Shown here piece after piece: positions 2,849 through 60,522 of a stretch of DNA of 64,000 nucleotides (positions are counted from its first letter, which is position 1; each line of letters begins with the position of its first letter). Under the pieces are notes generated by a model. It was given only the letters and a program-made list of their open reading frames with translations, ran no database searches and had not been told where the DNA came from. Source of the stretch: Bacteroidota bacterium (GTDB lineage: Bacteria; Bacteroidota; Bacteroidia; Bacteroidales; Prolixibacteraceae); the NCBI GenBank assembly GCA_023251435.1, contig JAHEYU010000027.1, positions 1-64,000 on the forward strand. The letters are read 5' to 3'. The translations under genes were made by a program, and so were the position numbers.

Positions 2849-2998
2849 TTTTGATTTTTCTTTTCATAAACATATCTTTTAGAAAAAAGGTTTATGATAC
2901 GATCAAGATTTACTAATTGTATTGGTCATTAGCAGTTCTGTTCAAAATTTGTTGGGATAAAAATACTATCTGGCTGATAGGCAATGGAAAATAGTCAT

Positions 2999-3047: not shown

Positions 3048-3053
3048 TTACAA

Positions 3054-5067: not shown

Positions 5068-5187
5068 TTTCTTCGGATTTTAAATAAATATTCAGGATTT
5101 TGAATGATAAGACAAACTTTCAGCTAATTAGTTTAACCTCCCCTAAGCTTTTCAGTTTCTCATGAAGTGAAATATCAAACGCTCAAA

Positions 5188-6237: not shown

Positions 6238-6244
6238 AGGAAAT

Positions 6245-6330
6245 TAATTTGAAAATTAGTTAATGTGACAATTCGGCAATTGAAGAAACCTAGATTCATA
6301 ATCGAATTGCAGAATTATCGAATTGACTCA
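6245..6330. repeat. Word-type intergenic repeat between arsC and acr3
   Basis: The gap contains several near-copies of an AATTCG/GAATTG word: CAATTCGGCAATTG, ATCGAATTGCAGAATT and ATCGAATTG. They are imperfectly palindromic. The element sits inside the operon, so any hairpin would form in the mRNA between the two cistrons. Confidence 0.5.
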
Positions 6331-6731
6331 TTGTAAAATTTCCAGAAACCTTCTTTAATCTCGTCCCTTACCCGGATAAATTCGCTCCAGATAAACTCAT
6401 CGGTTCCAACAGCATGACTTGGATCATCGAAGCCAATGTGTAAACGGTGTTTAACCTTACCGAAAAATGCCGGGCAGTTTTCGTTGGCTCCACCACAAAC
6501 GGTAATCACATAATCCCATTCATCGTTCAGGTATTTTTCAACCGAATCGGAAGTGTGGTGACTGATGTCAATGCCGATCTCTTTCATAGCGGCAACTGCT
6601 TTCTTGTTCAGTTTTCCCGAAGCTTCGGTCCCTGCTGAACAAACTGTGATGTTCGAATCGAACGACTGTAAAAAACCATGTGCCATTTGGCTGCGGCAAC
6701 TATTGCCAGTGCAAAGAATTAAGACTTTCAT
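6315..6731 (-). CDS. arsC: Arsenate reductase, LMW protein-tyrosine-phosphatase type (thioredoxin-coupled)
   Basis: The 138-residue protein reduces arsenate to arsenite. The phosphatase-like P-loop is at the extreme N-terminus (LCTGNSCRSQMAHG, Cys7 and Cys12). The later VCGGANENCPAF supplies the further cysteines used in the thiol cascade, and FDDPSHAVG is the usual aspartate-containing loop. The length agrees with the Staphylococcus/Bacillus ArsC class. It lies between arsR and acr3 on the same strand. Confidence 0.95.
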   Translation of the reverse strand: MKVLILCTGNSCRSQMAHGFLQSFDSNITVCSAGTEASGKLNKKAVAAMKEIGIDISHHTSDSVEKYLNDEWDYVITVCGGANENCPAFFGKVKHRLHIGFDDPSHAVGTDEFIWSEFIRVRDEIKEGFWKFYNESIR

Positions 6732-6794
6732 AATTATGTAGTTTTAAAATTGGACAATTTAAAGTTTTTAAAATGTGATATTTTAATAATGTGT

Positions 6795-7130
6795 TTACTC
6801 GCAGGAGAAACTTTCGGGGAGTTGAATTACCTCCAGAAATCCGGTCAACAGCTCTTTCATTTCTTTTACCTTTTCGTTATCGAGACAATACTTCATTTTT
6901 ACTCCTTCGATGTGCCCTTTGATGAGCCCTGCATCTTTTAGCTCTTTCAAATGTTGATTTACGGTGGTGCGGCTGAGTGGTAATTCATCAGAAATATCGC
7001 CTGAAATACAGTTTTTTGTTTCGGACAGAAATAGCAGAATCTGCAACCGCGCCGGGTGTGCCAGCGCTTTAAATAAATTCGCTTTTTCCTGAAGTGCTTC
7101 GTCGAAAAGTGCTGTTTTTGATACTACCAT
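6795..7130 (-). CDS. arsR: ArsR-family metalloregulator of the first arsenic operon
   Basis: The 111-residue winged-helix repressor has the ArsR/SmtB pattern: FKALAHPARLQILLFLS, the recognition helix SRTTVNQHLKELKDAGLI and the wing GVKMKYCLD. Candidate arsenite-binding cysteines are in KNCISGD near residue 42, in KYCLD and in the C-terminal FSCE. The usual CVC pair is absent, so the metal site is non-classical. The gene heads arsR-arsC-acr3 and is preceded by two mirrored 18-bp palindromes. It shares about the same length and fold with the second ArsR of this window but has a different recognition helix. Confidence 0.93.
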   Translation of the reverse strand: MVVSKTALFDEALQEKANLFKALAHPARLQILLFLSETKNCISGDISDELPLSRTTVNQHLKELKDAGLIKGHIEGVKMKYCLDNEKVKEMKELLTGFLEVIQLPESFSCE

Positions 7131-7148
7131 GATTCCGAATTTTAGATA

Positions 7149-7194
7149 TGACGTAAATATACGTCAAATAGTGGTTTGACGTATATTTACGTCA
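7149..7194. promoter_or_regulatory. Twin ArsR operators in front of arsR
   Basis: Two 18-bp palindromes lie 28 bases apart: TGACGTAAATATACGTCA at 7149-7166 and TGACGTATATTTACGTCA at 7177-7194. Each has TGACGTA/TACGTCA arms and the second is the exact reverse complement of the first. They are 19 and 47 bases upstream of arsR and face the divergent E1 gene. Binding by the adjacent ArsR is inferred from position and symmetry. Confidence 0.8.
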
Positions 7195-7413
7195 TTAAAT
7201 TTTGATTAATTCTATTAAATTTTAATTTTACTTTAGCAGGTTAACTTGATTTGCTTTCAGGTAAATAATGGATAATCAGTTTTGTCAGGGGTCGCATGGG
7301 TTGAACAAAAAATGATGGAAACAGTTTCATTAGCATTGAGGTTTCAAACTGAAGTATTTCAAACCAATTTGGCAGATAAATACTTTTACAAATTTTAATA
7401 TTCATTGCAACGA
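7195..7413. other. Divergent intergenic region between arsR and the E1 gene
   Basis: This AT-rich stretch separates the arsR operators from the dehydrogenase gene. No terminator or additional gene is seen. A weak TTG start at 7405 precedes the ATG at 7414. Confidence 0.5.
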
Positions 7414-9831
7414 ATGTATCTTGACAAAGCAGAACTTGTGGAAACAAAAACAGAGCTGATAGCGACCGTATTACAAGATTATTACCTGGTTTATTTAAGT
7501 AGGCAGTTAAGTTTGCTGGGACGAAAAGAAGTTCACAACGGACGGGCGCATTTTGGAGTTTTTGGGGATGGAAAGGAATTGGCACAAATTGCATTGGCCA
7601 AAACATTCAGAAAAGGCGACTGGCGCTCGGGTTATTATCGTGACCAAACTTTTATGCTGGCATTGGATTTACTGAAAACGGAAGAGTTTTTTTCTATGAT
7701 GTACGGCGATACCGATGTGAATTTCAACCCTTCCACCGGAGGACGAAACTTTAACAATCATTTCAGCACAACAAATATTAGTCCTGAAGGAAAAATTGAA
7801 AACCTGATGGGGCAGTTCAATTCTGCTGCTGATCTTTCGCCAACTGCGGGCCAAATGCCGAGATTACTGGGACTTGCACAGGCTTCAAAAATGGTCAGGC
7901 AAAATCCGGAATTGAAAAAACACCTATATAACAATGTTGACGGAAATGAAGTTGCCTTTGGTTCAATTGGCGATGCAAGTACTTCCGAAGGAATGTTTTT
8001 CGAAACAATCAATGCCGCAGGAGTTATGCAGGTTCCGTTGGCCATAACTGTATATGACGATGGTTTCGGAATTAGTGTTCCAATCGAGCTTCAAACGACC
8101 AAATCGAGCATTTCAGAAGCCTTGAAGGGTTTTGAAAACGATGATGCCAACAACGGAATCTCAATTTTTACCTGCAAAGGATGGGATTATCCAAAGTTGG
8201 TACAAACATTTTCAGAAGGTATAGAACATTGCCGGAAAACACAAAATCCGGTTTTGTTTCACATTCAGGAATTAACACAACCAACTGGTCATTCAACTTC
8301 CGGTTCGCACGAGCATTATAAAACCAAAGAACGGCTTGCGTGGGAAAGCGAGTTTGATTGCCTGGTCCAATTCCGGAAGTGGTTGCTCGAAACCGGAAAA
8401 GCTGATCACGATACGCTTTCAGAAATAGAAAACAGGGCAGCAAAAACTGCACAGGCTGCGCGCAACAAGGCCTGGAAAAATTATCTGAATAGTTTTTCGG
8501 ATGAAACAAAATCCCTGACTCAGATTACCGGGCAGATTAAACTGAAATCGCTCCTAAAGATTAATCACACCGAAGAACTTGAAGCCCTGAAAGCCAAGAT
8601 ATTCCCCACCAGACGAGCTTTTTACAGCTTTACCAAACGGATACATTTTGAATTGCATGGGATAAATGGGCTGAACGATGAACGGGAAAAACTGAATGAA
8701 TGGATCAAACAATTTGAGGAACAAAACAGGAAGTTTTATAACACGAACCTTTACAGGGAAGGAGAGGATTCGGCACTTCAGGTAAAAAGTATTTCAGTCA
8801 GGTATCCTGAAAATCCATTACAGGTAAATGGTTCACAAATTCTAAATCAGAACTTCGATGCACTGTTTGAAAAACATCCGAACTTAGTCACTTTTGGCGA
8901 AGACACCGGTATGCTGGGCGATGTAAATCAGGGGATGAAAGGCATGCAGGCCAAATACGGCGCCGATAGGGTTTTTGATACCGGTATCAGAGAAACGACC
9001 ATTATCGGACAGGGAATCGGACTAGCGCTTAGAGGGTTTCGCCCGATTGCTGAAATTCAATACCTCGATTATCTGATTTACGCGCAATCAACGCTTAGCG
9101 ATGATCTGGCTTGTTTGCAGTACCGCTCAATTGGCAAACAGGCTGCGCCACTGATTATCCGAACCCGTGGTCATCAGTTGCAGGGAATCTGGCACGCCGG
9201 TTCACCCATGCAACTTATTTTGGGTTCAATGCGGGGAATTTACCTTTGTGTGCCGCGAAACATGACACAGGCTGCCGGCTTTTATAACACCTTGCTCGAA
9301 GCGAATGATCCTGCACTGGTGATTGAACCATTGAAAGGATACAACGTCAAAGAACCTTTGCCGGCAAACATGGGAGAATTTAAAGTGCCGCTGGGCATTC
9401 CTGAAATTGTTTCAGAAGGAACAGATGTAACTTTGGTGACTTACGGATGGAATGTGCATCATGCAGTAAAAGCAGCCCATTTGTTGATGGAAATAAAAAA
9501 TATTTCGGTGGAAGTGATTGATGTGCAGACTTTAATGCCTTTTGATGTGACACATGTTATCAGTAAATCAATTCAGAAAACCAACAAAGTGATTTTTATC
9601 GACGAAGATGTTCCGGGTGGCGCCACAGCATATATGATGCAAAAAGTTATGCAGGAACAACAGGCATTTAATTTTCTGGATACTGCCCCACGCACCTTGT
9701 CAGCCATGGAACACCGACCGGCTTACGGGGTCGACGGGGAATATTTCACGAAACCAAACGTTGAATTGATTTTTGAAAACATTTATCAAATGATGCACGA
9801 AGTGGACGTAAAGAAATATCCGTCACTATAA
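7414..9831 (+). CDS. 2-oxoacid dehydrogenase E1, fused alpha and beta subunits
   Basis: The 805-residue protein joins the two thiamine-diphosphate E1 subunits. The alpha-like half (about residues 20-370) has YYRDQTFMLA and the cofactor motif beginning IGDASTSEGMFFE and ending in VYDDGFGIS. The beta-like half (about 470-800) has VTFGEDTG, DTGIRETTIIGQGIGLAL and the HAGSPM region. It should decarboxylate a branched-chain 2-oxoacid or a pyruvate-like substrate and pass the acyl group to an E2 that is not encoded here. The ThDP motif ends in Asp-Asp rather than the usual Asn-Asn. The ATG at 7414 is preferred over an in-frame TTG nine bases upstream. A cupin gene follows 20 bases later. Confidence 0.9.
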   Translation: MYLDKAELVETKTELIATVLQDYYLVYLSRQLSLLGRKEVHNGRAHFGVFGDGKELAQIALAKTFRKGDWRSGYYRDQTFMLALDLLKTEEFFSMMYGDTDVNFNPSTGGRNFNNHFSTTNISPEGKIENLMGQFNSAADLSPTAGQMPRLLGLAQASKMVRQNPELKKHLYNNVDGNEVAFGSIGDASTSEGMFFETINAAGVMQVPLAITVYDDGFGISVPIELQTTKSSISEALKGFENDDANNGISIFTCKGWDYPKLVQTFSEGIEHCRKTQNPVLFHIQELTQPTGHSTSGSHEHYKTKERLAWESEFDCLVQFRKWLLETGKADHDTLSEIENRAAKTAQAARNKAWKNYLNSFSDETKSLTQITGQIKLKSLLKINHTEELEALKAKIFPTRRAFYSFTKRIHFELHGINGLNDEREKLNEWIKQFEEQNRKFYNTNLYREGEDSALQVKSISVRYPENPLQVNGSQILNQNFDALFEKHPNLVTFGEDTGMLGDVNQGMKGMQAKYGADRVFDTGIRETTIIGQGIGLALRGFRPIAEIQYLDYLIYAQSTLSDDLACLQYRSIGKQAAPLIIRTRGHQLQGIWHAGSPMQLILGSMRGIYLCVPRNMTQAAGFYNTLLEANDPALVIEPLKGYNVKEPLPANMGEFKVPLGIPEIVSEGTDVTLVTYGWNVHHAVKAAHLLMEIKNISVEVIDVQTLMPFDVTHVISKSIQKTNKVIFIDEDVPGGATAYMMQKVMQEQQAFNFLDTAPRTLSAMEHRPAYGVDGEYFTKPNVELIFENIYQMMHEVDVKKYPSL

Positions 9832-48241: not shown

Positions 48242-49027
48242 ATGAACATACTCGATCAAATAAACAACCATAAACGGACCGAAATTGCTGAGGCAAAAAG
48301 TAAAGTTTCGTTAGAGCAATTGAAGGAATCTCCTTATTTTAAGCGGAAGACGAACTCACTGATAGCCGCTTTGCTGGCCGAAGGTGCGAGTGGGGTGATT
48401 GCTGAATTCAAAACACAATCGCCATCGAAAGGTGTGATAAACGCTGAGGCAGAAGCTTCGGAAGTAACTGCTGCCTATGTTGCTGCCGGCGCAAGTGGAT
48501 TATCGGTTTTGACTGATGAGCGCTTTTTTGGTGGCTCGTTCGAAAATCTGGCATCGGCACGTTGGGCAAATAAAAATACCCCGATTTTGCGTAAAGATTT
48601 TATGCTCGATCCGTATCAGATTTACGAAGCCCGTGCCCACGGTGCCGATGTAATCTTGCTGATTGCCGAAAGTTTGAGCAAACAATTGTTGCTCGAACTG
48701 ACCGAAACCGCCAAAGAAATTGGCTTGGAAGTGTTGGTAGAAGTGCACAGCGCCGAAGAATTGGAGAAGCTGAATCCAAAGGTAGATTTGGTGGGCGTGA
48801 ACAACCGTAACCTGAAAACTTTTGAAGTCGATATTCAGACTTCGGTTCGCCTGAGTGAATTGATTCCGGAGCAGTTTGTAAAAATTTCGGAAAGCGGAAT
48901 TTCTGATCCGGAAAGTATCAGCAAACTTCGCGCGGCAGGTTTTAAAGGTTTCCTGATTGGCGAAACCTTTATGAAAACCGATGATCCGGGTAAAGCCTGT
49001 AAAGAGTTTATTGAGAAATTGAAATAA
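48242..49027 (+). CDS. trpC: Indole-3-glycerol-phosphate synthase
   Basis: The 261-residue TIM-barrel enzyme closes the indole ring. Visible landmarks are IAEFKTQSPSKGVINAEA, YVAAGASGLSVLTDERFFGG, LRKDFMLDPYQIYEARAHGA, EVLVEVHSAEELEKL, VGVNNRNLKTFEVD and the C-terminal ISESGISDPESI with GFLIGETFMKT. The length is that of a monofunctional synthase; the isomerase is the separate trpF. Confidence 0.96.
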   Translation: MNILDQINNHKRTEIAEAKSKVSLEQLKESPYFKRKTNSLIAALLAEGASGVIAEFKTQSPSKGVINAEAEASEVTAAYVAAGASGLSVLTDERFFGGSFENLASARWANKNTPILRKDFMLDPYQIYEARAHGADVILLIAESLSKQLLLELTETAKEIGLEVLVEVHSAEELEKLNPKVDLVGVNNRNLKTFEVDIQTSVRLSELIPEQFVKISESGISDPESISKLRAAGFKGFLIGETFMKTDDPGKACKEFIEKLK

Positions 49028-49058
49028 AAAGGATGCTGTTTATTAAGTTATAGGTACC

Positions 49059-49123
49059 GTCATCCTGAACTTGTTTCAGGATCCCATCGCAATGCAGACC
49101 CCGAAATAAATTCGGTGTGACAT
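49059..49123. repeat. Intergenic repeat of the CATCCTGAACTTGTTTCAGGATC type in the trpC-trpF gap
   Basis: GTCATCCTGAACTTGTTTCA, then GGATC, contains the inverted pair CCTGAA/TTCAGG. CCGAAATAAATTCGG (49101-49115) and the closing GTGACAT mirror the opening GTCAT. The class is unrelated to the elements in the earlier trp gaps. Confidence 0.6.
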
Positions 49124-49172
49124 GATTCGCGAAGGTTTTGACTTTTTCGAAAGCCTCTTAGAAATAAATGGA

Positions 49173-49808
49173 ATGATGAACGAACTAAAAATAAAGGTCT
49201 GCGGAATGCGCGATCCTGAAAATGTTTCAGGAGTAGTTGATGCACGACCAGATTTCATTGGATTTATTTTTTACCCGAAAAGCAAACGGTTTGTTGGCTT
49301 CGAACCTTCTCCGGAAGTGTTGGGCAATGTTCCGGATTCGGTTAAAAAAGTGGGCGTTTTTGTGGATGAAACTCCGGAGAAAGTGCTGGAAATTTACCAG
49401 AACTGGAAATTGGATGTGGTTCAGTTGCACGGACACGAAACTCCGGAATATTGCAGGCAAATTCAACATTCAGGAATTACCGTTTTCAAAGTTTTTTCGG
49501 TAGATGAATCGTTTGACTTTATCGCTTTGGAAGCTTATTTCGAGGTTTGCGATTATTTTTTGTTCGACACCAAAGGCCAACTTCCTGGCGGAACCGGGCA
49601 GAAATTTAACTGGCAGCTATTGAAAAACTATAAAGGTTTGGTACCCTTTTTTCTGAGTGGTGGCATTGGGCCTGATGACCTGGAAGTCCTTCGTAATTTT
49701 GAACATCCCCGATGGCATGGAATAGATATCAACAGCGGGTTTGAAATCAGTCCTGCTCTGAAGGATGTTATGAAAGTGAAGAATTTTATAGCTGAAGTTA
49801 GAAGGTAA
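49173..49808 (+). CDS. trpF: Phosphoribosylanthranilate isomerase
   Basis: The 211-residue TIM-barrel enzyme performs the Amadori rearrangement. It starts LKIKVCGMRDPENVSGVV with the catalytic Cys, then FIGFIFYPKSKRFVG, KVGVFVDETPEKV, VQLHGHETPEYC, LFDTKGQLPGGTGQKFNW and FLSGGIGPDDLE with GIDINSGFEISPALKD. The ATG at 49173 (Met-Met-Asn) is preferred to one 17 codons earlier because the residues before it do not match the family. Confidence 0.94.
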   Translation: MMNELKIKVCGMRDPENVSGVVDARPDFIGFIFYPKSKRFVGFEPSPEVLGNVPDSVKKVGVFVDETPEKVLEIYQNWKLDVVQLHGHETPEYCRQIQHSGITVFKVFSVDESFDFIALEAYFEVCDYFLFDTKGQLPGGTGQKFNWQLLKNYKGLVPFFLSGGIGPDDLEVLRNFEHPRWHGIDINSGFEISPALKDVMKVKNFIAEVRR

Positions 49809-49819
49809 AAAAATGGAAA

Positions 49820-49853
49820 TAACCAATAATCAATATTGAATATCCAATATTGA
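49820..49853. repeat. Word-type repeat in the trpF-trpB gap
   Basis: AACCAATAATCAATATTG is followed by AATATCCAATATTG. The words are like those at 27507-27580 beside xylB, showing that one class occurs in two operons. Confidence 0.6.
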
Positions 49854-49896
49854 AGAAGAAAATCATAAATAATCATTCATCAATCATAAATAGAAA

Positions 49897-51078
49897 ATGA
49901 ATTATCAGGTAAACGAAAAAGGTTATTACGGCGAGTTTGGCGGGGCGTATATTCCCGAGATGATGGTGCCGAATATCGAAGAACTTCGAAGAACCTATCT
50001 CGAAATCATCCAATCGTACGATTTCAGGCAGGAGTTTATTGGCTTGCTGAAAAACTACGTGGGGCGGCCATCTCCGTTGTATCTGGCTAAAAGACTTTCA
50101 GAAAAATACCAAAGCAACATTTTCCTGAAGCGCGAAGATTTGAATCATACCGGCTCGCACAAAATAAACAATACCATCGGACAAATTCTGGTGGCTAAAA
50201 AACTTGGTAAAACCAGGATAATTGCCGAAACCGGCGCGGGTCAGCATGGACTGGCAACAGCCACCGTTTGTGCCCTGATGGGCTTAGAATGTATCGTGTA
50301 CATGGGCGAAGTGGATGTTGAACGACAGGTACCGAACGTAAAAAAAATGCGGATGCTGGGAGCAAAAGTTATTCCGGCATTGAGCGGGAGCAAAACGCTG
50401 AAAGACGCGACCAACGAGGCGATGCGCGACTGGATCAACAATCCGGTTGATACGCATTACATTATTGGATCGGTGGTTGGACCACATCCGTATCCCGACA
50501 TGGTGGCACGGTTTCAGTCGGTCATTTCAGAAGAAATTCGCTGGCAGTTGGACGAACAAACCGGGCGCGAAAACCCGACCCGGGTGATTGCCTGCGTGGG
50601 AGGAGGAAGCAATGCTGCCGGGGCTTTCTATCATTTTTTGGATCAGGAAAATGTGGAACTGATTGGTGTTGAAGCTGCCGGAAAGGGTGTTGATACAAAC
50701 GAATCTGCTGCAACGCTCACTCTCGGAACTCCCGGAGTTCTGCACAGTTCGCGCTCCATTCTGATGCAAACTGATGATGGACAAGTCACTGAACCGTATT
50801 CGATTTCGGCCGGACTGGATTACCCCGGAATTGGACCGATGCATGCCAATTTATTTACAACGCACCGCGCCAAATACCTTTGGGCCACCGATGCCGAAGT
50901 GCTGGATGCCGCCTTGGAATTAACTCAACTGGAGGGAATTATTCCTGCACTCGAATCGGCTCATGCCTTGGCTGTGCTGAAGAAAATTCAGCTAAAGCCT
51001 GATGAAGTAACCGTGATCAATCTTTCCGGAAGAGGTGACAAAGACATGGAAACCTATTTGAAATATTTTGGATATTAA
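49897..51078 (+). CDS. trpB: Tryptophan synthase beta chain
   Basis: The 393-residue PLP enzyme condenses indole and serine. It shows [47 protein letters not shown] with the PLP-binding Lys after [39 protein letters not shown] written here as [12 protein letters not shown], and [14 protein letters not shown]. The length and motifs match the TrpB1 class that forms a complex with TrpA. Confidence 0.97.
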
Positions 51079-51081
51079 AAA

Positions 51082-51147
51082 TGCTGCTGGCCTCTGGCTG
51101 CTAGCTTCTGGCTTTTTGCTAGCAACCAGTTGCCAGCTGCAAGTAAC
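51082..51147. repeat. Word-type hairpin in the trpB-trpA gap
   Basis: GCTGCTGGCCTCTGGCTGCT, then AGCTTCTGGC, is mirrored by GCTAGCAACCAGTTGCCAGC. The words CTGGCT and GCTAGC recur. It is a third vocabulary within the same operon. Confidence 0.7.
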
Positions 51148-51163
51148 TTAATTTTGAAAAATC

Positions 51164-51946
51164 ATGAACAACAGAATAAATAAACTATTTCAGGAGAAAA
51201 AAGAACAGATACTTTCGGTATATTTTACTGCCGGATACCCGAATCTGGAAGATACCGTTCCGATGATTCAGGAGTTGGTAAAAAACGGCGTTGACCTGAT
51301 CGAAATCGGGATGCCGTTTTCTGATCCGGTAGCCGATGGACCAGTCATTCAGCACAGCAGTCTGATCGCTTTGCAAAACGGGATGAGCATTCGCAAGCTT
51401 TTTGATCAATTAAAAGACATTCGCCAAACGGTTGATATTCCGCTCATTCTAATGGGCTACATTAATCCGGTGCTGCAATACGGAGTAGCAGCTTTTTGCC
51501 AGAAGTGCAAAGAAATTGGTATCGACGGGCTGATTATCCCCGATCTTCCGATGGATGTTTTTGAGGAAGAGTTTAAAAAGGTTTTTGAAGCCAATGGCCT
51601 GCATAATATTTTCCTGATTACGCCACAAACCTCGGAAGAACGTCTTCGGAAAATCGATGCTGTTTCAACCGGTTTTATTTACATGGTTTCGAGCAATTCG
51701 ACCACCGGAGCCAAAACGAGTGTTTCTGAACTACAGAACGAATACTTTGAACGCGTCAATTCATTTGGGCTAAAGAATCCAAGACTGATTGGGTTCGGAA
51801 TTTCGAATGCCGAAACTTTTGCCAATGCCTGTCAATATTCCAGCGGAGCAATCATTGGCAGCGCCTTTGTAAAAGCATTGGAAGGAAGCGATCCGCTCCA
51901 TCAAAAAGTTTCAGGTTTTATTAATTCGATTGTAACTGTATCGTAA
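51164..51946 (+). CDS. trpA: Tryptophan synthase alpha chain
   Basis: The 260-residue TIM-barrel subunit cleaves indole-3-glycerol phosphate. LSVYFTAGYPNLEDTVPMIQ, LIEIGMPFSDPVADGPVIQH (catalytic Glu), LMGYINPVLQYG, GLIIPDLPMDVFEEE (catalytic Asp), NIFLITPQTSEERL, FIYMVSSNSTTGAK and LIGFGISNAETF are all visible. It is the last gene of the operon. Confidence 0.97.
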   Translation: MNNRINKLFQEKKEQILSVYFTAGYPNLEDTVPMIQELVKNGVDLIEIGMPFSDPVADGPVIQHSSLIALQNGMSIRKLFDQLKDIRQTVDIPLILMGYINPVLQYGVAAFCQKCKEIGIDGLIIPDLPMDVFEEEFKKVFEANGLHNIFLITPQTSEERLRKIDAVSTGFIYMVSSNSTTGAKTSVSELQNEYFERVNSFGLKNPRLIGFGISNAETFANACQYSSGAIIGSAFVKALEGSDPLHQKVSGFINSIVTVS

Positions 51947-52646: not shown

Positions 52647-53138
52647 ATGAAAACAAAACTTGGAATTTTAACAGTGTGTTTGCTTCTGGTAAGTTTATTA
52701 TCCGTTGCAAAAGAAAAAGGAACTTCACTGCTTAGTGGTCAATCATTGACCGAACTTGGTCAATACAGCATTCGTGTTTCGAATGATGCAATGCAATTGG
52801 GAGATGAACTTTTAAAAACCTACGAACTGAATTATACAAACTACGATTCTCCGGTTTTAATCGGTGTGAAGAAAACCAAGAAATGTATGAATTTCATTGT
52901 TCGCACCGACAATTTTGAAATCGAATATGTTTGTAATAAGAATGTTTTTGGGGTGAAGCGTGTTAACAAAGAGTACCAGACAATTTCGACAGCAGCGATT
53001 AACCAAATGTTAGACAATGCTGATTTTTACAGTCAAAGGATTATTTCGCAGTATCCTAAAACCGAAGAAGAATTGCTGGGACTAATTGCCTGTTACTTCC
53101 CCTCATTGATTAAAGAGGATCATCTGGCTGGATTATAA
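52647..53138 (+). CDS. Secreted hypothetical protein
   Basis: The 163-residue protein has a clear signal peptide (KLGILTVCLLLVSLLSVA). The mature part, about 138 residues, has two Cys (KCMNF and YVCNK) that could form a disulfide and a C-terminal helix ending ACYFPSLIKEDHLAGL. I do not recognise a family. It has its own terminator at 53219-53255. Confidence 0.7.
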   Translation: MKTKLGILTVCLLLVSLLSVAKEKGTSLLSGQSLTELGQYSIRVSNDAMQLGDELLKTYELNYTNYDSPVLIGVKKTKKCMNFIVRTDNFEIEYVCNKNVFGVKRVNKEYQTISTAAINQMLDNADFYSQRIISQYPKTEEELLGLIACYFPSLIKEDHLAGL

Positions 53139-53218
53139 AGCGGGAATTTGAAGTAAGAAACAAAAGTTTATTGGATTTAACAGCAAGAATAACGTGGAAT
53201 TTTCATTCCTTTTAATTT

Positions 53219-53255
53219 AAGTTTCCGGAGCCATAAGATCCGGAAACTTTTTTTT
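53219..53255 (+). terminator. Terminator of the secreted hypothetical protein gene
   Basis: AAGTTTCCGGA at 53219-53229 pairs perfectly with TCCGGAAACTT at 53239-53249 and is followed by a run of T. Confidence 0.9.
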
Positions 53256-53533
53256 GATGTATGATGAAAAAGTGAGCTCAGTTTTACTCCTGAAAATCAA
53301 ATGAACTGATTAGGCTGTTTGTATTGGCTCAAATGCAGATATTAATGGCCGAACTACTGGAATCTCCGGTCGAATTACTTTTATGGTTTATGTAATTCTA
53401 TTGATCCTTTGCACTCTGCTGTTTGTATTTCCTCCGTCTCGATGATATTGTATTTATCTAAATTTATCTGTGATTTGGTCATCCTTATAAACCTATCGCC
53501 CGAAATGGTATAAACGCATAAAAAAACCGAAAA
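53256..53533. other. Region upstream of the signalling cluster
   Basis: No gene or hairpin is recognised. The promoter of the kinase cluster should lie here; a TTTG at 53474-53477 could be a -33 signal, but no clear -7 partner was found. Confidence 0.4.
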
Positions 53534-54589
53534 TTGAATAAGTTTTTATTCCATACCGACCTTAAATATCGCTTAAGCCGGCACATTACTTTCTTCGTAA
53601 TTATTGTGCTTGTTTTTACATTGGTTCTATTTAGTCGCAGTCATGGGCAAAATCTCGGTAAACTGCTTTATCTAACCGCTTTAAATGCTGTATTCTTTCT
53701 TGGCTTTGCTTACATCATGATATTTGTAATTATTCCGCTCTTTTTGCCTGAAAAAAAATATGCACTTCTGGGATTAACTTTTTTGGGAATAGGCTTTTTG
53801 TTATCGGTAGTAAAGCTGAGCATTTCCGATTTTATTTTTTATTCATCCATTTCTCCTGAATTTGTAGGTTCGCAAGGGTTGCTGAATGTCAGATATATAC
53901 TGGTAAATACCAAAGACATGTCGTTCATTGTGGCATTGTTCGTGATCGTAAAGTTTACCAAAGATTGGCTGATTACTGAGAATCAGCAAAAATCACTCGA
54001 AATGAAATATACTGAACTGAAACTTCGGCTGCTTCAGAGTCACTTCGAACCTCATTTTTTATTTAATACGCTCAATAATCTTTATGCATTATCGCTTAAT
54101 AATCAACACGAAACGCTCGATGTAATTCAGCGATTTAGCCGGGTACTTCAGTTTTCGATTACCGAGTCTCAAAAGGAAAAAGTTCCTGTTTCAGAAGAAA
54201 TAAACATGATTGAAGATTTTGTCAGGATTGAACAGATCAGATATGGGAACAGGCTTCGGGTAGAAAGTTCAGTCACGGGAGATTACCTAACCCTGATGAT
54301 TGCCCCGATGCTGATTTTCACCCTGGTCGAAAATTGTTTCAGGCATGGAAGCAGCACCGACGCGGGTCAGCCATGGATCAGCCTTTCGCTTGCATGCGAA
54401 AAGGGCAGGATATATTTCGAAGCAAGAAACAGCATTCCGGAAAAGTGCAATTCGCCAATTACCATTCAGGAGAAAGGATTATTGAAATTGCGACAGCGGC
54501 TTGATATCATATATCCCAGGAAATATTCGCTGACGTTAAGCGAAGGTTCGCGTGAATTTACTGCAAAGCTCGAATTGGATTTAAATTAG
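53534..54589 (+). CDS. LytS-type sensor histidine kinase 1
   Basis: The 351-residue protein starts at TTG; an in-frame stop lies 15 bases upstream and no ATG is available before the first helix. It has four membrane segments (about residues 18-140) and no separate sensor domain. The kinase core has phospho-acceptor H174 in FEPHFLFNTLNNLYALS and an intact N box (FTLVENCFRHGSS). The G box is eroded: EKGLLKLRQRLDIIYP in place of the usual GxGLxNxxxRL. It may bind ATP poorly. It is the first of three tandem kinases. Confidence 0.9.
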   Translation: MNKFLFHTDLKYRLSRHITFFVIIVLVFTLVLFSRSHGQNLGKLLYLTALNAVFFLGFAYIMIFVIIPLFLPEKKYALLGLTFLGIGFLLSVVKLSISDFIFYSSISPEFVGSQGLLNVRYILVNTKDMSFIVALFVIVKFTKDWLITENQQKSLEMKYTELKLRLLQSHFEPHFLFNTLNNLYALSLNNQHETLDVIQRFSRVLQFSITESQKEKVPVSEEINMIEDFVRIEQIRYGNRLRVESSVTGDYLTLMIAPMLIFTLVENCFRHGSSTDAGQPWISLSLACEKGRIYFEARNSIPEKCNSPITIQEKGLLKLRQRLDIIYPRKYSLTLSEGSREFTAKLELDLN

Positions 54590-54595
54590 TAATAA

Positions 54596-55636
54596 GTGAC
54601 AGGATTACTGCGACATATCAACCAAAACCGCATTCTTAATCATACACTGTTCTGGTGTAGCTGGATTGGCGGGTTCACCATCATTCAGAGTTTTGGATAC
54701 GGTGCTGCCGATTATTGGGCCTGGCTGGTATATTATCTGGTAACATTGCCGCTGTTTGTGGCTCATACTTACGTTATTGCATACTGGCTTGTTCCGAAAT
54801 ACTTTTTCAGGAACCGTTATCTTGTATTTGCTTTTTGGATTATCGTTTTACTTGTTATTGTTTCTGTAGGCGAATTAATTATTAGCAACGGTTTTATCTG
54901 GAAGCTGGTAAAACCCGAAAATATTCAACCCGGAAATTACCTCAACTGGCAAAACGTACTGATTAACGGATTGGGCAACGAGTACATCGTTATAGTTTTT
55001 CTGTCGGTAAAAGTGGTGCATTTCTGGACCTTGAAGGTGGAGGAAAAGAGCGCATTGGTAAACCGAAAATTAGCCACCGAAATAGAGTTGCTGCAATTTC
55101 AGTCGTACCCCCGCTCTGTGCTGAATGTGATGGACCGGCTTGAGAAATTGGCGCTCGAAGGCTCGCCTCAAACTTCAGAAATGATCATTCGGCTGTCGAA
55201 CCTGATGAGCAGTATGATAGCAACCCGAAGAACCGATAAAATACTGCTGTGCAAAGAGATTGAAATGATTCGCAGCTATATCGAAATTCAGCGGATGAAA
55301 CTAATAAACAGCTTACCCGTGAATTTAATGGTAAAAGGAGAATTAAACAGCATCAGAATTGCGCCATTTCTATTTTTTCAGATGGTTGAAGAAGGATTTG
55401 TAATATTGGAAAACAATCAGGAAAATTCTGATTTTACCATATTAATCAAAGCCGAACCCAATTATCTGCTTTTTTCGATGACAATATGGAATCCTGACGA
55501 GCTCAAAACGAAATATAATCATACGGTTTTAGAAAATTGTCGTAAATACCTGAACTTTTTTTATCCTGAAAATCATAAGTTTATGTCGAATTTTGAAATT
55601 AACTTTGTTGAAATAACCATCGAAATTTATCTCTGA
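54596..55636 (+). CDS. LytS-type pseudokinase 2
   Basis: The 346-residue protein begins at GTG, 6 bases after kinase 1. It keeps the four N-terminal membrane helices and the coiled linker of its neighbours. In the kinase core the phospho-acceptor His is R173 (FQSYPRSVLNVMDRL), the N box reads QMVEEGFVILENN, and no G box remains (VLENCRKYLNFFYP). It should neither bind ATP nor be phosphorylated. The frame is full length and free of stops, so it is maintained as a protein, perhaps as a regulatory partner in a dimer with kinase 1 or 3. Confidence 0.85.
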   Translation: MTGLLRHINQNRILNHTLFWCSWIGGFTIIQSFGYGAADYWAWLVYYLVTLPLFVAHTYVIAYWLVPKYFFRNRYLVFAFWIIVLLVIVSVGELIISNGFIWKLVKPENIQPGNYLNWQNVLINGLGNEYIVIVFLSVKVVHFWTLKVEEKSALVNRKLATEIELLQFQSYPRSVLNVMDRLEKLALEGSPQTSEMIIRLSNLMSSMIATRRTDKILLCKEIEMIRSYIEIQRMKLINSLPVNLMVKGELNSIRIAPFLFFQMVEEGFVILENNQENSDFTILIKAEPNYLLFSMTIWNPDELKTKYNHTVLENCRKYLNFFYPENHKFMSNFEINFVEITIEIYL

Positions 55637-55639
55637 CCA

Positions 55640-56695
55640 ATGCCAATAAACTCCATCTATCTGTTTCTGAATAAACGACCGGTATTGCATCTGTCGTTCT
55701 GGTTGCTATTTGTCCTGATCGGATCATTTATTTTTAGCTATCAGCAAAATTTTCCGTATTCTTTTTTCCTGTTGAATTTTGTGGTTCACTTGCCTGTATT
55801 TGTTTTATTTAGCTATGGGGTGGTTTATTTGCTGGTTCCAAAACTGCTGTTGAATAAAAAGTACTGGCAGTTTTTTGCATCATTGTTTATGGCAACTTGT
55901 ACAGCCGCCATGTTGCGTATCTTGGTGGGTAAATACGTTTATTATGCCCTTTTTATTCCTGAAGTTTTGCATCCCAAAGAATGGTTCAATACCGAAATAT
56001 TTTTTCTGAACCTGATATGGATTATCGGAACAGCCATCACCTTTGCCATGTTCAAGTATTATAAAAACTGGATGACTAGCCAAACTCATGCCAACGAAGC
56101 CGAACGTAAACATTTATCGTCGGAGTTGCAGGTACTCAAAGCGCAGTTAAATCCACATTTTCTTTTCAATACTTTCAATAACCTTTATGTGCTGTCGCTC
56201 CAGAAAAGTGATAAAACGCCCATTGCCATTTCTAAAATGTCTGACCTTTTTCACTACATATTATATGAGTGCAATTCGGTGGAAGTGCCTGTTTCTAAAG
56301 AGGTAAAACTAATCGAAGATTATATCCAGCTTGAAGAGTTGCGCTATTCCGATAAGCTGTCGATCACTTTCGTCAAGGATGTCGACAATCCTGAATGTAT
56401 GATTCCGCCCATGTTGATTTATACTTTTATCGAGAATTGTTTTAAACATGGATGCAGCAACGATCCGGGCTCATCCTGGATTAAACTTCGCATTGATGTG
56501 CACGATTGCCGGTTTGTTTTTGTAGCGTCTAACAGTATCCCGGTATCCGTATCACAAAGCAAAAACACAGGTGGTGGGGTAGGATTGGCAAATATTAAAC
56601 GACGGCTCGAATTAATCTATCCGGCCAACCACAGCCTCGAAATCAGAAAAGAAGCCCGTGAATTCCATGTGAGGCTCGAAATCTTTAAAAATTGA
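55640..56695 (+). CDS. LytS-type sensor histidine kinase 3
   Basis: The 351-residue protein is the complete member of the trio. Four membrane helices are followed by H173 in LNPHFLFNTFNNLYVLS, an N box FIENCFKHGCS and a full G box GGGVGLANIKRRLELIYP. It starts 4 bases after kinase 2. It is the likely phosphate donor for the LytTR regulator encoded two genes downstream. Confidence 0.93.
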   Translation: MPINSIYLFLNKRPVLHLSFWLLFVLIGSFIFSYQQNFPYSFFLLNFVVHLPVFVLFSYGVVYLLVPKLLLNKKYWQFFASLFMATCTAAMLRILVGKYVYYALFIPEVLHPKEWFNTEIFFLNLIWIIGTAITFAMFKYYKNWMTSQTHANEAERKHLSSELQVLKAQLNPHFLFNTFNNLYVLSLQKSDKTPIAISKMSDLFHYILYECNSVEVPVSKEVKLIEDYIQLEELRYSDKLSITFVKDVDNPECMIPPMLIYTFIENCFKHGCSNDPGSSWIKLRIDVHDCRFVFVASNSIPVSVSQSKNTGGGVGLANIKRRLELIYPANHSLEIRKEAREFHVRLEIFKN

Positions 56696-56713
56696 CACAA
56701 ATACCCGATACGA

Positions 56714-58456
56714 ATGAAAAAACTTCTGTTTCTATTGGTGATACTGATTTCTTCGACAGCATGTTTTGACCAGAAAAAACAGGCCGAGTCGATTTTGCGC
56801 CATTACATAGACCGCAAAGTTGACCTTATCAGGAATTATACAATGGAAGCTGAAGTTGCATTGTGGAACGCAACAGTATCGGGCAACGAATCGGATTACC
56901 AGAAATTGATTGATCTGGAACTGAATTTCAACAAAGCGAATCAGGATGTTTCAGGGCGGTTCGATCCCGACCGTTTTTATACCATTACCCAAAATGTATT
57001 TACCAATCAGCAGGATTTTGAGCTTCTGCAGAAATTGAAATTTTCGGGATTAATTTCCGATACGCTGCTTAGCCGACAGTTGAATGTTCTTTATCAGGCT
57101 TTTATGGGCTCGCAAATTGAGTCGGGGAAATATGAAAAGCTAATGATGACCGAGATAAAACTCTGGCAGATTTTCTCGGCTGCAAAAGTCCGGATCGACG
57201 GAAAAATTTACGGAAGTGCGCAGCTCGATTCCATCCGTCGTTTCAGTTCCGATGATTTGCTGGTGAAGAAAATCTCTGAATCGATGCAGGAAACAGGAAA
57301 ATTAATTGCTCCCGACATTATTCGAATGGTGAACGACCGGAACGGAATTGCCACCAGCTTCGGATATCCCGATTTTTACCATTTATCGCTCGAAGCAAAA
57401 GACCAGACTCCCGAAAAAATAAAAAAGTTGCTCGATGAAATAGAATTGAAAACCAGAGATCAGTTTTTTGAGGCAAAAAAAGTAATTGATAAAATTCAGG
57501 CCAGGAAGTTCCGTATTGCAGAAACTGACATACGTCCATGGCATTACAACGACGAGCGCACCAGTTACCTGCCCCAGAGCTTTAACCAAAAACTCGATTC
57601 GCTGCTCATTCAGGTTGATCCGAAAGAACGAACAGCACGTTTTTTTGAAGGAATTGGGTTCCCGATTCAGGATGTAATTGAGAACAGCAGGCTTGAAGAT
57701 GTGCCTGAAACCGCGAACCTGACCGCAATGATTAATGTTGATTTTAAGAACGATATACGACTGATTGCAGGAATCAAAAATACTCACGACGGGTTGATCC
57801 GAATGATGCATTTGGGCGGACACGCGTCGCATTATAAATCAATTTCAGATAAGGTTCCGTATTTGCTGAAAACTCCCAATTCTGTTGTATCCGAAGGCAT
57901 TGCCCGTTATTTCGAATCGATGGCATCTGATTACAACTGGCTTAAAAATGAAGTTTCAGCCGACGGAAAGTTTCAAAAAGAACTGTTAATTGTTTGTCAG
58001 CATCTTCGCCAGGTCGATCGTTTGATCAGATGCCGGAAACTGTTGGTATTCGCCGAATTTGAGCGCGAAATTTACCGTGATCCGCAACAAGATCTGGATT
58101 TGCTCTGGCATAATCTGAACCTGAAATACCTCGGTCAAAATTATCCATCGGAAAAAGGAGCCAATTATTGGGCCGCCAATAAAACGGTTACCAGTCTTTC
58201 GTGTACCATCCATAATTTTGTTTTGGCCGATATTTTTGCTGCCCAGCTGCAACATATCATCGAAAAAGGAGTCTTAACAGAAACCGACAGTTTAATTCAG
58301 GATAATAAAGCCATCGGAAAATATCTGGTCGAAAATTTATATCGCTATGGCAATCTGCTCCCGTGGGAAAATTTGATTGAAAAAGCCACCGCAGAACCGT
58401 TAAATCCTGAATATTTTGTAGAACAACTGGTTGGAAATGAAAACAAAAGCAATTAA
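56714..58456 (+). CDS. M2 (ACE-like) metallopeptidase-fold lipoprotein, catalytically altered
   Basis: The 580-residue protein has a lipoprotein signal (LLFLLVILISSTACFD). The all-helical body has the M2 peptidase pattern: an N-terminal helical lid, then a zinc motif read as MMHLGGHASHY with H366 and H370, and E394 in VVSEGIARYFESM. The spacing of 24 residues between the second His and Glu equals that in angiotensin-converting enzyme. The catalytic Glu that should follow H366 is Leu. It may still bind zinc and a peptide, as a sensor or scaffold rather than a protease. It is 18 bases downstream of kinase 3 and 104 bases upstream of the response regulator. The family call is by eye. Confidence 0.7.
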   Translation: MKKLLFLLVILISSTACFDQKKQAESILRHYIDRKVDLIRNYTMEAEVALWNATVSGNESDYQKLIDLELNFNKANQDVSGRFDPDRFYTITQNVFTNQQDFELLQKLKFSGLISDTLLSRQLNVLYQAFMGSQIESGKYEKLMMTEIKLWQIFSAAKVRIDGKIYGSAQLDSIRRFSSDDLLVKKISESMQETGKLIAPDIIRMVNDRNGIATSFGYPDFYHLSLEAKDQTPEKIKKLLDEIELKTRDQFFEAKKVIDKIQARKFRIAETDIRPWHYNDERTSYLPQSFNQKLDSLLIQVDPKERTARFFEGIGFPIQDVIENSRLEDVPETANLTAMINVDFKNDIRLIAGIKNTHDGLIRMMHLGGHASHYKSISDKVPYLLKTPNSVVSEGIARYFESMASDYNWLKNEVSADGKFQKELLIVCQHLRQVDRLIRCRKLLVFAEFEREIYRDPQQDLDLLWHNLNLKYLGQNYPSEKGANYWAANKTVTSLSCTIHNFVLADIFAAQLQHIIEKGVLTETDSLIQDNKAIGKYLVENLYRYGNLLPWENLIEKATAEPLNPEYFVEQLVGNENKSN

Positions 58457-58560
58457 GAAAACGTAAAAATGCTGAATTTGTGTGTATTAAATTTGTAATG
58501 CCGGTTCTATCAGAAATACCAATTGAATTAGAAAACAGAAACAAGAATAACCAGAAACAC

Positions 58561-59295
58561 ATGAAGACAAAATGTTTAATTGTAGATGATGAACCTTTAG
58601 CCAGGGATCTCATCCGCCGCCATGTTGAAAAACTTGAAAACTTCGAAATTGTAGCCGAATGCAGCGATGCCATGAAAGCGCTGAACATACTACGCGAGAA
58701 GCAGGTCAACCTTATTTTTATGGACATACAGATGCCGCAGATTACCGGCATCGAATTTCTGAAAACCCTGAAATATCCCCCAAAAGTAATTATCACCACC
58801 GCCTATCGCGAATACGCGCTCGAAAGTTTTGACCTAGATGTAGTTGATTATTTGCTTAAACCCATCACGTTTGAGCGATTCCTGAAAGCTGTTAATAAAT
58901 TTTACCAGATGAGTCAGGAGGATATTCAGTTGGGAACTGGGGCATCAGCCGAAAAATTGTCCGACGAAGCATTTATTTACGTCAAGGAAAATAAAAAAGT
59001 GGTAAAAGTTTATCTTTCCGAGATAAGGTACATCGAAGGATTGAGCGAATACGTGCAGATTTTCACCGACAAACGCAAGATCATTACCAAAACCAGCATG
59101 GCACAGATGGAAGAAAAATTACCCGGCGAAAATTTCCTGCGGATCCATAAATCGTTCATCGTTTCAATCGGCAAAATTGAGGCGTTTACCGCCAATACCA
59201 TCGAAATACAGGGCAAGGAACTACCCATTGGCCGAAGTTTTAAAAATGCCGCTTTGAGCGCGTTAAATTTCACAGGTTCGCTTGCCGGGGTTTAG
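58561..59295 (+). CDS. LytTR-family response regulator
   Basis: The 244-residue protein from ATG 58561 has a receiver domain (CLIVDDEPLARDLIRRHVEK, phospho-acceptor Asp in VNLIFMDIQMP, VDYLLKPITFERF) and a LytTR DNA-binding domain (FIYVKENKKVVKVYLSEIRY, IEGLSEYVQIFTD, FLRIHKSFIVSIGKIEAFT). An earlier in-frame Met at 58480 would add 27 residues not found in the family. LytTR proteins are the usual partners of LytS-type kinases, three of which precede it. Confidence 0.94.
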   Translation: MKTKCLIVDDEPLARDLIRRHVEKLENFEIVAECSDAMKALNILREKQVNLIFMDIQMPQITGIEFLKTLKYPPKVIITTAYREYALESFDLDVVDYLLKPITFERFLKAVNKFYQMSQEDIQLGTGASAEKLSDEAFIYVKENKKVVKVYLSEIRYIEGLSEYVQIFTDKRKIITKTSMAQMEEKLPGENFLRIHKSFIVSIGKIEAFTANTIEIQGKELPIGRSFKNAALSALNFTGSLAGV

Positions 59296-59682: not shown

Positions 59683-60522
59683 ATGGCAAAGGAAATAGCA
59701 AAACAAGCATTGTCGGTGTTTGAACAAATACGGCAAACCGATGAAAACGGAAATGAATTCTGGGCAGCACGCCAACTGGCTAAAGCACTTGAATATACTG
59801 ATTTCAGAAACTTTCTTTCAGTAATCGAAAAAGCGAAAGAAGCTTGTAGAAATAGTGGGCAGCCTGTCGAAAACCATCTCGTTGAATTCAACGAGATGGT
59901 ATCTATTGGCTCTGGTGCCGAAAGAGAAATGAATAGCTATAAATTATCGCGCTATGCATGTTATCTGGTCGTACAAAATGCCGATCCGTCAAAAGAAATA
60001 GTTGCTTTGGGGCAGACCTATTTTGCCGTGCAAACCCGTTTGCAGGAAATACGCCAGATGGACGAGTACAATCGTTTGAGCACCGAGGACGAAAAACGAC
60101 TCTTTCTGCGCAACGAAATGGCAAAGCACAATACACAACTGGCCGCCGCGGCCAAAGATGCCGGAGTTATCGAGCCAATTGACTATGCCATTTTTCAGAA
60201 CCACGGTTATATGGGATTGTATGGTGGACTGGATGCCAAAGCCATTCACGCAATAAAAGGATTGAAAAAAAGCCAGCAGATACTCGACCACATGGGCAGT
60301 ACCGAACTGGCCGCCAATCTGTTTCGTGCCACACAAACCGAAGAAAAACTACGCAGAGAAAATATACAAGGCAAACAAAAAGCCAACAATACTCATTTTG
60401 AAGTAGGCAAAAAAGTACGCCAAACCATTGAAGAAATTGGTGGCTCCATGCCCGAAAACCTGCCAACAGAAGAAAGCATTAAGAAATTGGAACCAACCAC
60501 AAGAAAAAAGCTTAACAAATGA
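59683..60522 (+). CDS. dinD: DNA-damage-inducible protein D (BRO-N domain)
   Basis: The 279-residue protein matches DinD throughout: FEQIRQTDENGNEFWAARQL, YTDFRNFLSVIEKAKEAC, KLSRYACYLVVQNADPSKEI, VALGQTYFAVQTRLQEIRQM, and DYAIFQNHGYMGLYGGLDAK. DinD in E. coli is SOS-induced and affects RecA filaments; in Bacteroidota it often sits in restriction-modification or defence islands. A small gene overlaps its stop codon by 4 bases and a remnant follows. Confidence 0.93.
   Translation: MAKEIAKQALSVFEQIRQTDENGNEFWAARQLAKALEYTDFRNFLSVIEKAKEACRNSGQPVENHLVEFNEMVSIGSGAEREMNSYKLSRYACYLVVQNADPSKEIVALGQTYFAVQTRLQEIRQMDEYNRLSTEDEKRLFLRNEMAKHNTQLAAAAKDAGVIEPIDYAIFQNHGYMGLYGGLDAKAIHAIKGLKKSQQILDHMGSTELAANLFRATQTEEKLRRENIQGKQKANNTHFEVGKKVRQTIEEIGGSMPENLPTEESIKKLEPTTRKKLNK

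What the first reader, a model, noticed from the sequence alone, without database searches (positions are those of the whole stretch)
53534..59295. Five-gene membrane signalling cluster: kinase, pseudokinase, kinase, inactive-ACE-like lipoprotein, LytTR regulator
Three kinases of the same architecture lie almost end to end and show graded loss of function: kinase 3 complete, kinase 1 with an eroded G box, kinase 2 without His, N box or G box. An envelope lipoprotein with a zinc-peptidase fold that cannot catalyse is encoded between the kinases and the regulator. The kinases have only membrane helices and no sensor domain, so the lipoprotein is a natural candidate for the periplasmic sensor of a peptide or similar ligand. 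I know of no described system of this composition.
Basis: partly seen in the sequence, partly recalled or inferred. Interest (0 to 1): 0.85.

Follow-up and report, generated by a model that had tools for sequence, protein, structure and literature searches.

The report
Signalling cluster using two retired enzymes
Some bacteria of the family Prolixibacteraceae carry a gene cluster in which one gene switch is fed by two paired inputs, one pair containing a kinase that has lost its active site and the other a lipoprotein related to the blood-pressure enzyme ACE but lacking its catalytic residue, so dead enzymes seem to have been kept as working parts of a sensor.

Summary
The window carries K1-K2-K3-LP-RR (three LytS-type kinases, an ACE-like lipoprotein, a LytTR regulator). 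K2 is a true pseudokinase: of 44 K2 sequences, the window's included, 43 lack the phospho-His, 41 the N-box Asn and 44 the GxG, yet K2 stays full length and under purifying selection. LP descends from M2 (ACE-type) zinc peptidases: its profile matches HExxH-bearing homologues at E 4.8e-113 over the full length, but its own motif is HLGGH. Comparison of 99 loci shows two inputs that come and go as blocks in front of one orthologous regulator: K1+K2 (together in 43 loci, and in a 44th cut by a contig end) and K3+LP (together in 20 of 20, at the thresholds used). The window has both. A secreted-type 163-aa protein upstream (52647-53138) is a frequent sixth neighbour. Most likely LP is K3's partner outside the membrane and K2 a non-catalytic partner of K1. 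Gene content shows the pairing; physical contact, ligand and targets are inferred. I found no description in print. New variant of a known kind.

The parts
52647..53138 (+). 'small': 163-aa protein with an N-terminal signal-like segment; frequent upstream neighbour, identity unknown
   Evidence: Homologues in 119 of 140 family genomes. Present in 35 of 37 loci with K1/K2 and no LP, in 11 of 20 loci with LP, and without any kinase, LP or RR of the set in 22 of 99 loci. No Pfam match over cut-off; PDB best E 2
53219..53249 (+). Terminator-like hairpin after 'small', so 'small' is probably its own transcript
   Evidence: 11-bp stem, 9-base loop, then a T run; fold of 53205-53262 -16.2 kcal/mol, z -4.63. 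Not listed by the consensus scan, whose loop limit is 8
53534..54589 (+). K1: LytS-type membrane kinase; His and N box kept, G box eroded (EKGL)
   Evidence: PF06580 76.2 bits; motifs; dN/dS 0.17 (NG86) against L031
54596..55636 (+). K2: pseudokinase of the same architecture; no phospho-His, no N-box Asn, no G box
   Evidence: PF06580 42.7 bits; motif loss shared by the K2 group; dN/dS 0.145 (NG86) against L031; one clade with K2 of family f8
55112..55114 (+). Arg codon at the place of the phospho-His of K2 (residue 173)
   Evidence: Alignments
55640..56695 (+). K3: LytS-type membrane kinase with all motifs
   Evidence: PF06580 79.4 bits; motifs; dN/dS 0.06
56714..58456 (+). LP: 580-aa lipoprotein, M2/ACE-type pseudo-peptidase
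   Evidence: Full-length profile match to HExxH-bearing M2 homologues, E 4.8e-113; directly PF02074 27.3 bits, PF01401 14.7 bits; dN/dS 0.09
57809..57823 (+). HLGGH: both zinc-ligand His kept, catalytic Glu replaced by Leu
57893..57895 (+). Glu394: third zinc ligand kept
58561..59295 (+). RR: LytTR response regulator, the shared output
   Evidence: PF00072 86 bits, PF04397 65.1 bits; dN/dS 0.05; one lineage across the A, B and A+B loci

Best explanation
A two-input LytS/LytTR signalling module. Input B is the pair K3+LP: the ACE-fold lipoprotein, which in most cluster members keeps its zinc ligands but not the catalytic Glu, binds a peptide-like ligand outside the cytoplasmic membrane and switches the complete kinase K3. 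Input A is the pair K1+K2 (with a further kinase K0 in some genomes): K2 is a non-catalytic partner that controls K1 or the complex it sits in, most simply as a heterodimer subunit. Both inputs set the phosphorylation of one LytTR regulator. Shown here: composition, motif loss, conservation, purifying selection, en-bloc presence and absence of the two pairs, one orthologous regulator. Inferred: physical contact, ligand binding, direction of control, target genes.
For: K1 and K2 occur together in 43 of 44 loci that hold either; in the 44th (L067) an 88-aa end of K1 lies at the contig edge. K3 (400 bits or more) and LP occur together in 20 of 20 loci that hold either, against 57 loci with neither. 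A-only, B-only and A+B loci sit in front of one RR lineage (95/89) and A+B and B are interspersed in its tree. K3+LP stays together where RR is not at the locus (L078, L079) or reduced to a remnant (L077). K2: 43 of 44 without His, 44 of 44 without GxG, length 345-350 in the window's family, dN/dS 0.10-0.16 by NG86 and 0.18-0.20 by YN00, close to K1. K2 of two families form one clade (100/99), and so do K1 (99/100). LP: full-length M2 descent; Glu lost in 14 of 20 cluster members, 12 of which keep all three zinc ligands. K1's GxG is lost in 14 of 25 loci with another K0/K3-type kinase and in 1 of 17 without, as expected if a neighbour can supply ATP-dependent activity; this was noticed after the fact.
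Against: No interaction, ligand or target was tested; both structure predictions failed (mean pLDDT 39.8 and 46.2). Neighbouring genes can be lost by one deletion without forming a complex, and the loci are related to each other, so the Fisher values overstate independence. The 20-of-20 for K3+LP depends on the 400-bit threshold: L187, L260, L261, L266 and L268 hold kinases labelled K3 at 155-312 bits and no LP; three of these (L260, L266, L268) were put in the tree and fall outside the K3 clade, L187 and L261 were not put in. K1 of L242 lost GxG with no other kinase at the locus, and K3 of L062, the only kinase there, lost the second Gly of GxG. Only 7 of 20 LP loci carry K1+K2, so the inputs are not needed together. 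L073 and L074 lack the zinc His pair. The system is patchy: 12 of 23 genus genomes carry K3-LP, and 25 of 140 family genomes have any LP match.
Confidence: 0.5

Rival explanations
1. LP is an output rather than an input: a ligand-binding lipoprotein made under control of the RR and encoded in its operon, not a sensor subunit.
For: Operons of regulators often include a target gene (general knowledge); LP is encoded just upstream of RR. M2 lipoprotein homologues apart from such kinases are common in the order: 34 of 149 genomes have an LP match, the window's included, and none of the 29 other loci fetched there shows K1-K3 within 1.5 kb.
Against: LP is never found beside RR without K3 in the 77 loci and stays with K3 where RR is absent or deleted, so its tie is to the kinase.
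Confidence: 0.25
2. K2 works on the regulator, not on K1: it binds RR or RR~P as a brake or phosphate-state sensor, as reported for DivL with DivK.
For: DivL, with Tyr for His, binds phosphorylated DivK and controls another kinase (PMC5361649, passages read). K2 is the kinase nearest RR in the family's loci without LP.
Against: In the window and the other A+B loci K3 and LP lie between K2 and RR. K2 always has K1 beside it, never RR alone; in family f8 it lies between K1 and a third kinase.
Confidence: 0.25
3. K2 and LP are decaying relics with no function.
For: Motifs are lost; blocks are absent from many related loci; one genome carries a collapsed remnant (L075).
Against: Full-length frames, dN/dS 0.09-0.16 by NG86 (0.11-0.22 by YN00), shared motif loss over two families in 44 K2 sequences.
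Confidence: 0.04
4. LP still cleaves something by a mechanism that does not need the HExxH Glu.
For: Zinc ligands are kept in 12 of 14 Glu-less members; L069 has HEGGH.
Against: The Lys and His that align to K-x-H of ACE are also replaced in the window and in L069; L073 and L074 lost the zinc His pair.
Confidence: 0.07

Closest known systems
LytS/LytTR two-component systems (BtsS/BtsR, YpdA/YpdB, LytSR)
   Same: PF06580 kinases and a Response_reg-LytTR regulator encoded together
   Different: Three kinases, one of them a pseudokinase, a short membrane input and an ACE-type lipoprotein. BtsS is described as a 7-transmembrane receptor that binds pyruvate (PMC10653868, title and start of abstract in the listing)
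Pseudo-histidine kinases: DivL (Caulobacter) and the laboratory-evolved ChrS pseudokinase (Corynebacterium)
   Same: Kinase fold without catalysis inside a two-component pathway; the ChrS pseudokinase forms heterodimers with the active paralogue HrrS (PMC9491836, abstract and outline)
   Different: K2 has lost His, N box and G box, is a lineage of its own that accompanies K1, and carries the PF06580 (LytS-type) domain
Peptidase family M2 (ACE and bacterial ACE-like enzymes)
   Same: Full-length homology through HExxH-bearing homologues, 14 of 14 of which match PF01401
   Different: HLGGH instead of HExxH, K-x-H pair replaced, lipoprotein encoded beside a histidine kinase
Metallo-pseudopeptidases acting as receptors or scaffolds (for instance ADAM11/22/23)
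   Same: Inactive metallopeptidases kept for binding (PMC11266112, passages)
   Different: Other families, animal proteins; 'M2 family' and 'angiotensin' do not occur in that review's main text

Membership tests
LytS/LytTR two-component system | PF06580 kinase with PHFLFN-type His box | tested here: met
   Met by K1 and K3; K2 has the domain (42.7 bits) but no His
LytS/LytTR two-component system | Receiver plus LytTR regulator | tested here: met
   PF00072 86 bits, PF04397 65.1 bits
BtsS-type LytS sensor | Large multi-helix input (7 helices reported for BtsS) | tested here: not met
   Three to four hydrophobic segments before the kinase part in a 19-residue hydropathy scan; no other Pfam domain over cut-off
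Active M2 peptidase (ACE) | HExxH with catalytic Glu | tested here: not met
   HLGGH in the window
Active M2 peptidase (ACE) | Third zinc ligand Glu downstream | tested here: met
   Glu394; kept in 13 of the 14 Glu-less cluster members, lost in L073
M2 family by homology | Profile homology over the full length | tested here: met
   A4 against A5 E 4.8e-113, 556 columns; A5 members 14 of 14 match PF01401. Of the cluster proteins themselves 5 of 14 match PF01401 and 14 of 14 PF02074 at E 0.01; the window protein scores 14.7 against PF01401 (cut-off 23) and 27.3 against PF02074 (cut-off 25.1)
DivL-type pseudokinase | Phospho-His replaced | tested here: met
   Arg173 in the window; 43 of 44 K2 sequences without His
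DivL-type pseudokinase | Binds phosphorylated regulator | not testable with these tools
   Needs protein
Obligate kinase-pseudokinase pair | Constant co-occurrence with one partner kinase | tested here: met
   K1 and K2 together in 43 of 44 loci, the 44th cut by a contig end
Obligate kinase-pseudokinase pair | Physical heterodimer | not testable with these tools
   Only single-chain prediction was available, and it failed for K2

The most novel reading that the evidence does not exclude
Two dead enzymes serve as sensing and gating subunits of one modular hub: an ACE-fold receptor lipoprotein that switches a LytS kinase by binding peptides, and an obligate histidine-pseudokinase/kinase heterodimer, old enough to be shared by two bacterial families, whose kinase partner tends to lose its own ATP lid where another such kinase is present. 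The two cassettes are exchanged in front of one conserved regulator, so the bacteria rewire input without touching output.
Probability: 0.3. Interest if true: 0.8.

Novelty: new variant of a known kind. Interest (0 to 1): 0.62.

Why it matters
Few bacterial histidine pseudokinases had been studied according to PMC5361649 (2014; passages read); here is a natural series of 44 related sequences that accompany one partner kinase, with loci that carry or lack each part. The LP series runs from intact HExxH through loss of the Glu to loss of the zinc His pair within one kind of gene neighbourhood, which makes the change from enzyme to possible receptor directly testable. Interchangeable input pairs on one regulator are a clear model for how signalling circuits are rewired.

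Tried and rejected
Structure prediction of LP (6-row alignment, mean pLDDT 39.8) and of K2 (6 rows, mean pLDDT 46.2) was too poor to use; no fold search was run. The K2 model shows four long N-terminal helices; its kinase part is unreliable.

A search for LytTR-type direct repeats upstream of 'small' and between 'small' and the next gene gave 19 pairs at period 21 in the second set, against 4-14 at the other periods found, but no common sequence; not pursued. Promoter- and terminator-like sites were at chance level.

Rejected: K2 or LP as decaying genes. Rejected: 'small' as an obligate part; 22 of 99 loci hold 'small' and no kinase, LP or RR of the set. 'Small' has no identity in Pfam or PDB.

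A search of 395 genomes of the class with the f8 K2 gave matches at E 1e-10 or better in 11 genomes, the window's K2 first (6.1e-40), the next at 7.5e-19; these were not followed.

Literature searches showed no description of this cluster; the library lacks most subscription journals.

Rows dropped or limits: group labels K0-K3 come from profiles built partly from the same loci; the 38 loci L232-L269 were not used in building them. The K3 and LP thresholds were 400 bits, K0-K2 150. Kinase ORFs outside 180-460 aa or under 140 bits were left out of the motif count. L085 was left out of the catalytic-residue table, and L080 lacks the C-terminal part. The kinase tree used kinases of 25 loci (60 rows); 13 of 73 RR rows were left out of the RR tree. 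The 14-member LP alignment A4 left out L064, close to L063.
Full report
What is there. Five genes run head to tail on the + strand: K1 53534-54589, K2 54596-55636, K3 55640-56695, LP 56714-58456 and RR, with its likely start at 58561 and its end at 59295. The three kinases match PF06580, and the regulator has Response_reg and LytTR domains. K1 keeps the His and N boxes but its G box is reduced; K2 has lost His, N-box Asn and G box; K3 has all. LP has a lipobox Cys that is invariant in 14 of 14 aligned cluster homologues. The whole genome has 15 PF06580 matches, three of them here.

The lipoprotein. Directly, LP passes only PF02074 (M32, 27.3 bits, cut-off 25.1, C-terminal part) and falls short of PF01401 (M2, 14.7 bits, cut-off 23). 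LP matches occur in 34 of 149 genomes drawn from the order, the window's included. I aligned 14 HExxH-bearing homologues (A5: 12 from other families of the order, two from the window's genus); 14 of 14 match PF01401, and their profile finds ACE in the PDB at E 1.8e-24. The profile of 14 cluster lipoproteins aligns with theirs over 556 columns at E 4.8e-113. So LP is of M2 descent. HExxH is HLGGH in the window; the third zinc ligand, Glu394, is kept. The K-x-H that aligns to K-x-H of ACE in the HMMER alignment is kept in the A5 homologues and replaced in the window; the four complete HExxH homologues beside a kinase (L076-L079) keep its His but not its Lys. That these ACE residues bind substrate is recalled, not taken from a call.

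A series of losses. Twenty LPs lie beside a K3-type kinase. Five of them (L076-L080) have HExxH intact; L069 has HEGGH; 14 have lost the Glu. Of these 14, 12 keep both His and the ligand Glu; L073 and L074 have lost the His pair. In the LP tree L069 lies inside the HLxGH group, sister to L070, so its Glu is either a return or there were several losses; its K-x-H pair is replaced too. Three homologues of other families with no such kinase beside them (L095, L099, L100) lost the two zinc His in a clade of their own.

Two inputs, one output. I examined 99 loci: the window, 20 anchored on LP (L061-L080), 37 anchored on 'small' and three on RR (L151-L190), and 38 anchored on RR (L232-L269). Of these, 77 hold a kinase of the set, LP or RR over threshold; 22 hold only 'small'. 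Patterns over threshold: small-K0-K1-K2-RR 17; small-K1-K2-RR 18 (L260 among them has a third kinase under threshold); K1-K2-RR or K0-K1-K2-RR without 'small' two (L249, L259); K1-K2-K3-LP-RR seven (WIN, L061, L063, L064; with K0 also L065 and L074; L067 with K1 cut by the contig end); K3-LP-RR without K1/K2 nine (L062, L066, L068-L073, L076; the contig of L068 ends inside K3); K3-LP without RR four (L077-L080, L080 cut by the contig end); K0 and RR five; RR alone 11 and RR with 'small' four. Of the 11, L187, L261, L266 and L268 have a kinase beside RR that scored 242-312 bits, under the K3 threshold. K1 and K2: 43 together, one K2 with K1 cut at the contig edge, 33 with neither. K3 and LP: 20 together, 57 with neither. 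The Fisher values (5e-21 and 7e-19) ignore relatedness. In a tree of 60 of the 73 regulators, A, B and A+B loci fall in one lineage (95/89), and A+B and B are interspersed, so blocks have come or gone while the regulator stayed. At L078 and L079 no regulator lies at the K3-LP locus, and at L077 only residues 1-17 and 181-232 are left; RR homologues of 54% and 56% lie elsewhere in G270 and G267, of 44% in G265. LP therefore follows the kinase K3, not the regulator.

The pseudokinase. Of 44 K2 sequences, 44 lack GxG, 41 lack the N-box Asn and 43 lack the His; the one with His is L259 of family f8. K0 keeps all three in 25 of 25; K3-labelled kinases keep His and Asn in 25 of 25 and GxG in 23 of 25. 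In family f8 the genes run K1-K2-third kinase, divergent from RR, followed by none to two 'small'-like genes. K2 of f8 and of the window's family form one clade (100/99), and so do K1 (99/100); the third kinase of f8 is a clade of its own. The loss of function is thus old. dN/dS (NG86) between window and L031: small 0.12, K1 0.17, K2 0.145, K3 0.06, LP 0.09, RR 0.05; between L032 and L033: 0.09, 0.14, 0.16, 0.04, 0.15, 0.05; YN00 gives somewhat higher values, at most 0.22. K2 is about as constrained as K1. K1's GxG is missing in 14 of 25 loci with another K0/K3-type kinase and in 1 of 17 without. This was noticed after the fact and the loci are related. L242 is the exception, and the K3 of L062, sole kinase there, has also lost a Gly.

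Sixth gene. 'Small' (52647-53138) is followed by a strong hairpin with a T run (z -4.63), so it is probably its own transcript. Homologues occur in 119 of 140 family genomes; 'small' lies in 35 of 37 loci with K1/K2 and no LP and in 11 of 20 loci with LP, divergent in L076 and L080 and downstream in L071. Its function is unknown; a target of the regulator is a guess.

Reading. The likeliest account is that LP is the outside partner of K3 and K2 a non-catalytic partner of K1, both acting on one regulator. Gene content supports pairing; contact, ligand and targets are untested. Precedents: the ChrS pseudokinase with HrrS heterodimers (PMC9491836, abstract) and DivL, which senses a phosphorylated regulator; PMC5361649 (passages) says about 1% of kinases have a substituted His. 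Eight literature searches showed no description of this cluster. Distribution is narrow: RR at E 1e-80 or better in 59 of 140 family genomes and at 1e-75 or better in 15 of 393 genomes drawn from the order; K3-LP in 12 of 23 genus genomes.

Noticed in passing
L075 (G164) 5067-9680: Collapsed version of the cluster: 'small' residues 1-85 directly followed by 146-161, about 38 residues of the K1 start, LP residues 12-153 running into RR residues 39-244. Real deletions or an assembly fault.
   Followed up: partly
L077 (G268) 9326-9531: Regulator reduced to residues 1-17 and 181-232 beside an intact K3-LP pair; most of it, the receiver included, is gone.
   Followed up: partly
L069 (G162) 2232-3962: LP with HEGGH nested among HLxGH relatives; codon GAG where relatives have TTG or CTN. 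Possible return of the Glu.
   Followed up: partly
L095 4889-6598, L099 4642-6342, L100 4558-6303: M2 lipoprotein homologues of other families that lost both zinc His in a clade of their own and have no kinase of this set beside them.
   Followed up: partly
L094 5378-11063: An HExxH-bearing M2 lipoprotein homologue followed by a 1006-aa K1-like ORF (25%) and an RR-like ORF (25%): possibly another pairing of an M2 protein with a signalling pair, or chance.
   Followed up: no
L151, L163, L165, L254-L256: Regulators with no kinase of the set at the locus; most of them have long branches in the RR tree (not L163), as if evolving faster after losing their kinases.
   Followed up: no
L257-L260 (family f8): K1, K2 and a third kinase, divergent from RR: the same pseudokinase pair in another family.
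   Followed up: partly
window 59683-60522: DNA damage-inducible protein D (Bro-N), NCBIfam match 418.6 bits, just downstream of RR.
   Followed up: no
window 48242-51946: Tryptophan biosynthesis genes (recognised by recall) upstream; genes of like lengths also precede the cluster in L061, L062 and L069, not in the other cluster loci seen.
   Followed up: no
L032 record title: A record titled Chitinophaga pinensis carries a cluster very close to that of Prolixibacteraceae bacterium L033; the title may be a mislabel.
   Followed up: no
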